The notes below the pieces were generated by a model, which saw only the letters and a list, made by a program, of their open reading frames with translations, was not told where the DNA came from and did not search any database. Position numbers and translations under genes: made by a program. Shown piece after piece: positions 17,786-25,991 of a DNA stretch of 64,000 nt (within the stretch, counting starts at the first letter, position 1; every line of letters starts with the position of its first letter). The stretch spans positions 1 through 64,000 of the forward strand of contig JAITGM010000007.1 in NCBI GenBank assembly GCA_031280685.1, in the 5' to 3' direction. This DNA comes from Christensenellaceae bacterium. Its GTDB lineage: Bacteria > Bacillota > Clostridia > Christensenellales > UBA1750.

Positions 17786-18087
17786 AAAAAGAGCCTGCCC
17801 CATATAAGGGCAGACTCTCAAAAATCCGCGGTACCACCTTATTTCCCCCGCGCAAAACCGTTCATGAACCACCTCTGCGCGCGGGCTCTTACAAAAATGC
17901 TATCACATTCTTGTGCCCTTAACGCGGGCCATCGTCTTGGATACTCGGTCGCCCTTTCCCCTCGCCCTCAGTGGACCACTTGCCGGTTCGCATCTCCGCA
18001 GGTCTTCCACCGCCGCCTGCTCTCTGTGGGCGCGCACCCCGGTTTGACTTCCACATCAATGGTTTGCTATGCACTTTGTTGACCCTA
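17786..18087 (-). ncRNA. T-box leader (aminoacyl-tRNA-responsive) with terminator; candidate UGG (Trp) specifier
   Basis: Minus strand: AGAGAG motif (18020-18025) in Stem I distal arm CAGAGAGCAGG..GGTGGAAGACCTG; Stem I base GTGG (18051-18054)/CCAC (17971-17974); specifier-loop strand CAAG-TGG-T (TGG at 17976-17978); T-box AAGGTGGTACCGCGG (17826-17840); terminator AGAGTCTGCCCTTATATGGGGCAGGCTCTTTTT (17786-17818). Confidence 0.9.
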
Positions 18088-25076: not shown

Positions 25077-25105
25077 TTGACGGTTGCGCCCGAATCCTGT
25101 ATGAT
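25077..25105 (+). promoter_or_regulatory. Sigma-A promoter TTGACG-17-TATGAT ahead of small ORF
   Basis: -35 25077-25082, 17-nt spacer, -10 25100-25105. Confidence 0.75.
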
Positions 25106-25134
25106 TCCCCGCAATAGGATTTTGGAGGTATCCC

Positions 25135-25248
25135 ATGCTTTCCTTCCTGCCGCTGATTCTTAGAACGTTTTTGGTTGGACGAATTACCATCGCCCTTCTA
25201 ATTGCCATTCCCTTTTTTTCACGGCGGACTGCGTGGGTCACAAGCTAG
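25135..25248 (+). CDS. Predicted 37-aa hydrophobic small protein / leader peptide
   Basis: GGAGG RBS 7 nt before ATG; MLSFLPLILRTFLVGRITIALLIAIPFFSRRTAWVTS*; promoter upstream and strong terminator downstream. Not in the supplied ORF track (too short). Confidence 0.55.
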   Translation: MLSFLPLILRTFLVGRITIALLIAIPFFSRRTAWVTS

Positions 25249-25271
25249 TCTCCCTTCACCCAAGGCAAAAT

Positions 25272-25317
25272 AACGCGTCCGCCGCGAAAGGGTTTCGTGG
25301 CGGGCGCGTTTTATTTT
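25272..25317 (+). terminator. Strong intrinsic terminator/attenuator
   Basis: AACGCGTCCGCCGCGAAA-GGG-TTTCGTGGCGGGCGCGTTTTATTTT. Confidence 0.85.
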
Positions 25318-25342
25318 GAATTCTCAAAACGGAGGGGTTTTC

Positions 25343-25933
25343 ATGAGCAACACCACCCAACAGCGGCCTAGGGACTGGGCCAACCCAACCCCCGCGGGGC
25401 TCGTCGCACTGGCGGCAGCCTGCATGTGCTTCTTCGCCCTGTTGACGGGCTCCGTCAGCGTGGCCGCGATGCCGCTCATCGGCTGCTGGCTTCTCGGCGG
25501 CTTTCTCATTCAGGTCGTCGTGGGCCTGTTGGACCTAAGGGGCGGCAACCACGCGGGCGGCAACACCTTCTTGTTCTTCAGCGCCTTTTTCATGTTCGCC
25601 AGCGGGCTTGAGATGTTCCTCAAATACAACGCGATTCAGGCCGGCACGCCGCTGGACGGCAGGCTGGACGGCTTCGTTTGGCTTGCCCTGGCCATCGTGA
25701 TGCTGCTTTGGACGCCCGCGTTCTTCACAAAGCTCAGCCTGCTCTCCATCATCGTTTTGCTGGTCGATGTCGCGTTGCCCTTCATCGCCCTTAACGACCT
25801 TGGTCTGCTCCCGAAAGGCCTTTCGGCGGTTCCCGCCTATTCCCTGCTGGCTGCGGGCGCCGTGGCTCTCTATTTGAGCGGAGCCCTCGTCGTCAACACC
25901 GCCTTTGGCAAAAAGATCTATCCTCTGCCCTGA
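25343..25933 (+). CDS. GPR1/FUN34/YaaH (acetate uptake transporter)-like membrane protein
   Basis: Six-TM pattern, N-terminal NPTPAGLVALAAACMCFFALLTG motif; RBS ggaggg. Confidence 0.75.
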   Translation: MSNTTQQRPRDWANPTPAGLVALAAACMCFFALLTGSVSVAAMPLIGCWLLGGFLIQVVVGLLDLRGGNHAGGNTFLFFSAFFMFASGLEMFLKYNAIQAGTPLDGRLDGFVWLALAIVMLLWTPAFFTKLSLLSIIVLLVDVALPFIALNDLGLLPKGLSAVPAYSLLAAGAVALYLSGALVVNTAFGKKIYPLP

Positions 25934-25950: not shown

Positions 25951-25991
25951 ATCAAAGGGGGCCTCCCTTGCCGGAGAGGCCCCTTTGATCA
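25951..25991. terminator. Bidirectional terminator between convergent genes
   Basis: CATCAAAGGGGGCCTCCC..GAGAGGCCCCTTTGATC. Confidence 0.8.

What the first reader, a model, noticed from the sequence alone, without database searches (positions are those of the whole stretch)
25077..25343. Unannotated 37-aa hydrophobic ORF sandwiched between consensus promoter and strong terminator ahead of an acetate-transporter-like gene
Seen: TTGACG-17-TATGAT, GGAGG RBS, ORF MLSFLPLILRTFLVGRITIALLIAIPFFSRRTAWVTS, then a very stable hairpin plus U-rich tract 30 nt before the transporter start. It is either a leader-peptide/attenuator controlling 25343-25933 or an autonomous small membrane protein (type I toxin-like or stress peptide). 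No obvious codon run for a single amino acid, which argues against classic amino-acid attenuation.
Basis: partly seen in the sequence, partly recalled or inferred. Interest (0 to 1): 0.6.

Follow-up and report, generated by a model that had tools for sequence, protein, structure and literature searches.

The report
Isoleucine-sensing attenuator before carboxylate transporter gene
The small peptide gene is a disposable sensor that appears to switch on a fatty-acid-type transporter only when the cell runs short of isoleucine, and ten related bacteria share the arrangement, which suggests how gut bacteria may obtain this amino acid from fermentation acids.

Summary
A promoter (25077-25105), a ribosome-binding site, a 37-codon ORF (25135-25248) and a strong terminator (25272-25317) precede an acetate-transporter-family gene (25343-25933). 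Ten genomes in different lineages carry the same layout before orthologous transporters. The leaders share little sequence but are enriched in isoleucine codons (15.7% against 5.2% in the transporters); Leu and Val are not. Some have runs of Ile (IIII, ITIIII). The end of the leader pairs with the terminator's 5' arm, so it can form an antiterminator; own pairs beat swapped pairs (p=0.0002). The best explanation is a ribosome-mediated, isoleucine-responsive transcription attenuator. A toxin is unlikely. Eight of the ten genomes, including this one, lack detectable ilvD. In relatives the transporter sits with an acyl-CoA synthetase resembling MbcS, near 2-ketoisovalerate ferredoxin oxidoreductase, or beside a branched-chain aminotransferase. 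I infer (about 60%) that it imports 2-methylbutyrate for reductive synthesis of isoleucine. The mechanism is known; the target and logic appear new. No expression or transport data exist.

The parts
25077..25105 (+). sigma-70-type promoter, TTGACG-17-TATGAT
   Evidence: conserved as TTGACG-17-TATAAT in the same-genus relative
25124..25128 (+). ribosome-binding site GGAGG of the leader peptide, 6 nt before ATG
   Evidence: GGAG(G) present in all ten loci
25135..25248 (+). leader peptide ORF, 37 codons (MLSFLPLILRTFLVGRITIALLIAIPFFSRRTAWVTS)
   Evidence: reading frame kept in the relative with synonymous changes and one whole-codon deletion
25183..25209 (+). control-codon cluster: four isoleucine codons in nine (I T I A L L I A I)
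   Evidence: Ile enriched in the ten leaders
25210..25235 (+). region 2, 5' arm of the antiterminator, inside the leader ORF (core CACGGCGGACTGCG)
   Evidence: duplex with region 3 -30.3 kcal/mol, shuffled mean -15.2, p = 0.0003
25272..25289 (+). region 3, 5' arm of the terminator and 3' arm of the antiterminator
25293..25317 (+). region 4 (3' arm of the terminator) and U-rich tract
   Evidence: z = -6.25
25331..25337 (+). ribosome-binding site of the transporter gene (GGAGGGG)
25343..25933 (+). regulated gene: divergent AceTr (GPR1/FUN34/YaaH) family transporter, 196 aa
   Evidence: PF01184 27.9 bits, gathering 25; below the AceTr_1 equivalog cut-off, 30.3 against 50
25958..25983 (.). inverted repeat after the transporter, probable terminator shared with the convergent gene

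Best explanation
It is an isoleucine-responsive, ribosome-mediated transcription attenuator. Transcription starts at about 25112 and a ribosome begins the 37-codon leader. If charged tRNA-Ile is scarce, the ribosome stalls on the Ile codons at 25183-25209; region 2 (25210-25235) stays free, pairs with region 3 (25272-25289), the terminator cannot form, and the transporter gene is transcribed. If isoleucine is plentiful, the ribosome runs to the stop codon, masks region 2, region 3 pairs with region 4, and transcription ends at about 25317. Shown by sequence: the layout, Ile enrichment, alternative pairings and their co-variation across loci. Inferred: stalling, read-through and the response to isoleucine. 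Further inference (about 0.6, not included in the confidence below): the transporter imports branched short-chain fatty acids, chiefly 2-methylbutyrate, which an acyl-CoA synthetase and a 2-ketoisovalerate ferredoxin oxidoreductase (VOR) turn into the keto acid of isoleucine, because most of these genomes lack ilvD.
For: Ten loci share promoter, RBS, leader ORF of 30-41 codons, and a terminator 15-32 nt after the leader stop; stop-to-gene distance is 84-109 nt. Ile is 55 of 351 leader residues (15.7%) against 5.2% in the transporters, p = 1.7e-10, and 5.2% expected from base composition, p = 3e-13; Leu and Val are not enriched. Leaders use ATT:ATC 42:10 against 23:57 in the transporter genes, p = 5e-9. 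Region 2 starts after the Ile codons. The 2:3 duplex beats shuffles (p = 0.0003 in the window; Fisher p = 8e-9 over nine loci) and own pairs beat swapped pairs (p = 0.0002). With a ribosome on the Ile codons region 3 pairs with region 2 (means 0.63-0.91); with the ribosome at the stop it does not (0.00-0.27), in all ten. For the transporter's role: ilvD undetected in 8 of 10 genomes although the control search rang in 14 of 14; VOR-type subunits in 9 of 10 genomes, none seen in G001, which is 88% complete; in G340 the attenuated transporter is followed at 15 and 7 nt by an HTH-cupin gene and an acyl-CoA synthetase whose best family is MbcS, then a CoA transferase; in G405 the same HTH-cupin/synthetase pair follows the VOR genes about 6.5 kb from the transporter; in G366 a branched-chain aminotransferase lies beside it. 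MbcS of S. aureus activates 2-methylbutyrate and isobutyrate, not acetate (PMC10026030).
Against: No expression data. The 2:3 duplex is not better than chance in L014 (p = 0.29) and L070 (p = 0.76) and is weak in L067. A protector hairpin 1:2 is not supported in the window (z = 0), so the state without translation is not predicted clearly. The stop codon lies about 10 nt beyond region 2, so masking at the stop is partial. For the transporter's substrate: G000's own transporter looks monocistronic and its VOR genes have no such leader; ilvD is also undetected in 36 of 80 other genomes tested; several genomes are incomplete; the MbcS-like scores (406-427) are under the equivalog cut-off of 850.
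Confidence: 0.88

Rival explanations
1. The attenuator is real, but the transporter carries acetate (or another small acid) and isoleucine shortage is only a proxy for general starvation or carbon shortage.
For: The protein belongs to PF01184, whose studied members carry acetate, lactate and succinate. G340 has a CoA transferase in the same gene row.
Against: Only Ile, not Leu or Val, is enriched. The signature NPAPLGL and constriction residues F17 and Y72 of SatP are replaced in every aligned member of this subfamily (L and F). Acetate does not lead to isoleucine by the usual route without ilvD. The acyl-CoA synthetase neighbour resembles MbcS, which does not use acetate.
Confidence: 0.2
2. 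The leader responds to an antibiotic or another ligand that arrests the ribosome on the nascent peptide, rather than to charged tRNA-Ile.
For: Hydrophobic Ile-rich stretches also occur in arrest peptides of resistance genes (own knowledge).
Against: Peptide sequence is not conserved as an arrest motif would be; only Ile-codon content and codon choice are. The target is a carboxylate-type transporter with amino-acid metabolic neighbours in relatives.
Confidence: 0.05
3. An autonomous small membrane protein or type I toxin.
For: Hydrophobic 37-aa ORF with its own promoter, RBS and terminator.
Against: No opposite-strand promoter-like site found; the ORF precedes this transporter in all ten loci; the sequence is unconserved except for Ile content; the nucleotides of the peptide's end are complementary to the terminator.
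Confidence: 0.03
4. An ordinary upstream sRNA or unrelated short gene with its own terminator, without regulation of the transporter.
For: The terminator is very strong.
Against: Own-pair complementarity between leader end and terminator arm, Ile enrichment and constant spacing to the gene in ten loci; only 26 nt lie between the U tract and the transporter start, too few for another promoter.
Confidence: 0.04

Closest known systems
Rli60 of Listeria monocytogenes (PMC5864092)
   Same: Ribosome-mediated attenuator with a leader peptide, terminator and antiterminator that senses BCAA, in a Firmicute; genetic tests published there
   Different: Controls the ilv-leu biosynthetic operon; 13-aa leader; here the target is a transporter and ilvD is usually missing
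Leucine/isoleucine-rich attenuator before ilvD of Staphylococcus aureus (PMC5794164)
   Same: Short leader with Ile and Leu codons, terminator 52 nt after the leader stop
   Different: Mainly Leu-responsive, biosynthetic operon
ilvGMEDA and ilvB leaders of enterobacteria; ilvBNC leader of Corynebacterium (PMC11857589, PMC10272879)
   Same: Classic leader-peptide attenuation by branched-chain amino acids (own knowledge and abstracts)
   Different: Multivalent (Ile, Val, Leu) and biosynthetic; here Ile alone is enriched
T-box leaders (RF00230)
   Same: Amino-acid-starvation control of transporters and biosynthesis; common in these very genomes
   Different: No T-box found here; sensing goes through a translated peptide
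SatP/YaaH acetate-succinate channel (PDB 5ys3)
   Same: Same family, PF01184, nearly full-length alignment
   Different: Very distant; NPTPAGL instead of NPAPLGL; constriction F17 and Y72 replaced by L and F
Isoleucine from 2-methylbutyrate in rumen methanogens (PMC2812497, PMC10658910)
   Same: The route proposed here for the transporter's substrate
   Different: Reported in archaea; no dedicated regulated importer described in the passages read

Membership tests
Ribosome-mediated transcription attenuator | Promoter, RBS and short translated leader upstream of the regulated gene | tested here: met
   ten loci. Translation is inferred from RBS and frame conservation, not measured
Ribosome-mediated transcription attenuator | Control codons for the sensed amino acid clustered in the leader | tested here: met
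   Ile 15.7% against 5.2%, p = 1.7e-10; ATT bias p = 5e-9
Ribosome-mediated transcription attenuator | Intrinsic terminator between leader and gene | tested here: met
   hairpins -16.5 to -32.3 kcal/mol with T-rich tails in all ten
Ribosome-mediated transcription attenuator | Alternative antiterminator pairing with the terminator's 5' arm | tested here: met
   significant overall and in the window; not individually in L014 and L070
Ribosome-mediated transcription attenuator | Ribosome position decides the fold (stall at control codons frees region 2, stop covers it) | tested here: met
   a thermodynamic model only
Ribosome-mediated transcription attenuator | Protector hairpin 1:2 when the leader is not translated | tested here: inconclusive
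   varies by locus; z = 0 in the window
Ribosome-mediated transcription attenuator | Expression rises on starvation for the amino acid | not testable with these tools
   needs reporter or RNA data
T-box leader (RF00230) | Match to the covariance model, stem I and T-box sequence | tested here: not met
   no match at 25077-25343
Type I toxin-antitoxin | Antisense RNA overlapping the small ORF | tested here: not met
   no sigma-70-like site on the opposite strand; a consensus scan only
AceTr (GPR1/FUN34/YaaH, PF01184) | Profile match above the gathering score | tested here: met
   27.9 against 25 bits
AceTr (GPR1/FUN34/YaaH, PF01184) | NPAPLGL signature and F-Y-L constriction of acetate transporters | tested here: not met
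   NPTPAGL; L and F at positions 17 and 72, V at 131; so it is filed as a divergent subfamily of the fold family, not as an acetate transporter

The most novel reading that the evidence does not exclude
An isoleucine attenuator that drives uptake and reductive carboxylation of 2-methylbutyrate: a dedicated, feedback-controlled salvage route for isoleucine in gut bacteria without ilvD, built on a divergent AceTr subfamily specialised for branched short-chain fatty acids.
Probability: 0.55. Interest if true: 0.72.

Novelty: new variant of a known kind. Interest (0 to 1): 0.58.

Why it matters
The regulator hints at what the transporter is for. Use of branched fatty acids for amino-acid synthesis is known physiologically in anaerobes, but the searches run here found no paper on a regulated importer for them (open-access library only). 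A leader that reads isoleucine supply in front of an orphan carboxylate transporter makes a testable candidate, ties a divergent AceTr subfamily to amino-acid supply, and suggests that leader-peptide attenuation works beside many T-boxes in the same Clostridia.

Tried and rejected
Riboswitch or other known RNA: no Rfam match at the locus. Viral homologues of the transporter: none. Profile matches of the peptide alone: only insignificant hits to sorting-signal models. Homologues without a leader (L010, directly behind another gene; L013; L016-L025) show the leader is confined to part of the subfamily. The homologue in a proteobacterial MAG (L015/L022) has a terminator and a Trp-rich frame but no standard start codon and no 2:3 complementarity, so it was left out. 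A leader before the VOR genes was sought and not found. The transporter tree is poorly resolved: leader carriers cluster (4 changes against 8.1 in shuffles), but one origin is neither shown nor excluded. The ilvD comparison with other genomes is only suggestive (2 of 10 against 44 of 80), as PF00920 also covers related sugar-acid dehydratases.

Full report
Observation. The terminator is highly significant on its own (-32.9 kcal/mol, z = -6.25). The promoter match is of ordinary quality (2 sites found in 3 kb against 1.1 expected). No Rfam family matches the stretch.

Nearest relative. The window belongs to a 2.24-Mb, 97%-complete genome. Its same-genus relative G001, apparently the same contig as JAITTC010000151.1, titled as a Christensenellaceae MAG (equal length and match position), has the unit at 78% DNA identity. 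Promoter, RBS, leader frame, terminator and transporter (85% identical protein) are all kept. In the leader the second half changes largely silently, one codon is lost whole, the start and stop are kept, and GRITIALLIAI and SRRTAWV persist.

Wider comparison. I read the upstream regions of transporter homologues from the public genome collection and from family and order searches. Ten loci in total have the layout: window, G001, G016, L011, L012, L014, L067, L068, L069 and L070. Record titles, where shown, are Christensenellaceae and Oscillospiraceae MAGs; the isolate names suggest termite guts, which is my inference. Leaders are 30-41 codons, the terminator starts 15-32 nt after the stop, and the stop lies 84-109 nt before the transporter. 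The peptides barely align with each other, but isoleucine stands out: L070 MKTTRLANIIIIREIFVISLLKVFGKPRMLGSL; L067 ...EEITIIIISL...; L011 ...SVIISVAIIAAVIMALIIK...; L069 ...FIIIGGIYSLIIM.... Over the ten, Ile is 55 of 351 residues, three times its share in the membrane transporters they precede, while Leu and Val are not enriched. Ile codons are ATT in 42 and ATC in 10 cases, against 23 and 57 in the transporter genes. Arginine is also enriched, which I do not explain.

Alternative structures. The stretch after the last Ile codon is complementary to the 5' arm of the terminator: -30.3 kcal/mol in the window against -15.2 for shuffles (p = 0.0003), and Fisher p = 8e-9 over nine loci without the near relative G001. 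Terminator arms differ in sequence among loci, so I asked whether each leader end pairs best with its own terminator. Own pairs total -182.3 kcal/mol against -141.6 +/- 9.9 for swapped pairs, p = 0.0002. L014, L067, L069 and L070 contribute little to this. A simple model with a ribosome footprint gives a uniform picture in all ten: ribosome on Ile codons, region 3 paired with region 2 (mean 0.63-0.91); ribosome at the stop codon, 0.00-0.27. The state without any ribosome is not uniform (0.14-0.87), and a protector hairpin is not supported in the window.

Mechanism. These are the anatomical features of leader-peptide attenuation as tested experimentally for Rli60 of Listeria (PMC5864092) and proposed for S. 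aureus ilvD (PMC5794164). I therefore hold an isoleucine-responsive attenuator as most likely (0.88). Stalling, termination and induction have not been measured.

What is regulated. The target is a distant AceTr protein: PF01184 at 27.9 bits, below the equivalog cut-offs for acetate transporters, 14.5 bits to SatP. In an alignment with SatP and ordinary AceTr proteins of the same order, every aligned member of this subfamily has an NPxxAGL motif for NPAPLGL, Leu for F17 and Phe for Y72. Those residues and L131 form the constriction that sets selectivity, and a yeast homologue with Y-to-F and L-to-V replacements there has a wider predicted pore and takes larger acids (PMC8779868). So acetate should not be assumed.

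Why isoleucine. Eight of ten genomes, including this one, show no ilvD although all 14 control genomes do. In other genomes searched 36 of 80 also lack it, so the association is weak, but for these cells the usual isoleucine synthesis seems absent. VOR-type 2-oxoacid ferredoxin oxidoreductases are present in nine of the ten; in G000 the VorB subunit scores 519 bits against a cut-off of 399. In G340 the attenuated transporter is followed closely by an HTH-cupin gene, an AMP-binding acyl-CoA synthetase with MbcS as its best family (406 bits, cut-off 850) and a CoA transferase. In G405 the same HTH-cupin/synthetase pair (54% and 61% identical) follows the VOR genes, about 6.5 kb from the transporter. 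In G366 a branched-chain aminotransferase above cut-off lies next to the transporter, divergently. In G340, without detectable ilvD, a 2-isopropylmalate synthase above cut-off neighbours VOR, which fits VOR working in the synthetic direction. MbcS of S. aureus prefers 2-methylbutyrate and isobutyrate and does not use acetate (PMC10026030). Reductive carboxylation of 2-methylbutyrate is the proposed isoleucine route of rumen methanogens (PMC2812497, PMC10658910). The simplest synthesis is that the transporter brings in 2-methylbutyrate for isoleucine (about 0.6). It remains inference: G000's own transporter stands alone, and its substrate is untested.

A parallel in the same genome: an indolepyruvate ferredoxin oxidoreductase operon with a phenylacetate-CoA-ligase-like gene lies directly behind a T-box whose specifier, read by me from the alignment, is UGG (Trp), in G000 and G001. 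That suggests that amino-acid synthesis from organic acids by reductive carboxylation may be under amino-acid control here more generally.

Novelty. The control mechanism is known and also described in Firmicutes. What appears new is the target: an attenuator reading isoleucine alone in front of a carboxylate transporter, in genomes that mostly lack ilvD. I found no paper describing it in the open-access library, which does not cover most subscription journals.

Noticed in passing
window 17803-18068 (-), with genes 17872-17150 and 17144-14711 (-): A T-box leader below the Rfam gathering score (61.7 bits), specifier read as UGG (Trp) from the alignment, precedes what looks like an ECF transporter operon (S component, two ATPases, T component): possibly a tryptophan-controlled importer.
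   Followed up: partly
L141 637-4588 (G000:C36) and L142 3981-7498 (G001:C43): Trp-specifier T-box in front of IorA, IorB and a PaaK-like CoA ligase: possible regulated reductive synthesis of tryptophan from indoleacetate.
   Followed up: partly
L153 3409-5632 and L161 2860-5153: A conserved HTH-cupin regulator plus MbcS-like acyl-CoA synthetase pair, once behind the attenuated transporter and once behind VOR genes; a candidate regulon for branched fatty acid use.
   Followed up: partly
L015 580-910 (same in L022): A proteobacterial homologue of the transporter has a terminator just before it and a frame with Trp codons (KAAWWAFAEWN) but no standard start codon; possibly another kind of leader.
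   Followed up: no
ten leaders, e.g. window 25135-25248: Arginine is strongly enriched in the leaders as well (9.4% against 1.1% in the transporters); perhaps a by-product of the G+C-rich antiterminator arm, not tested.
   Followed up: no
L018, L020, L023-L025: Leaderless members of the same transporter subfamily occur in syntrophic and sulfate-reducing bacteria such as Syntrophomonas wolfei subsp. methylbutyratica, a known 2-methylbutyrate degrader, which fits a role in fatty acid transport.
   Followed up: partly
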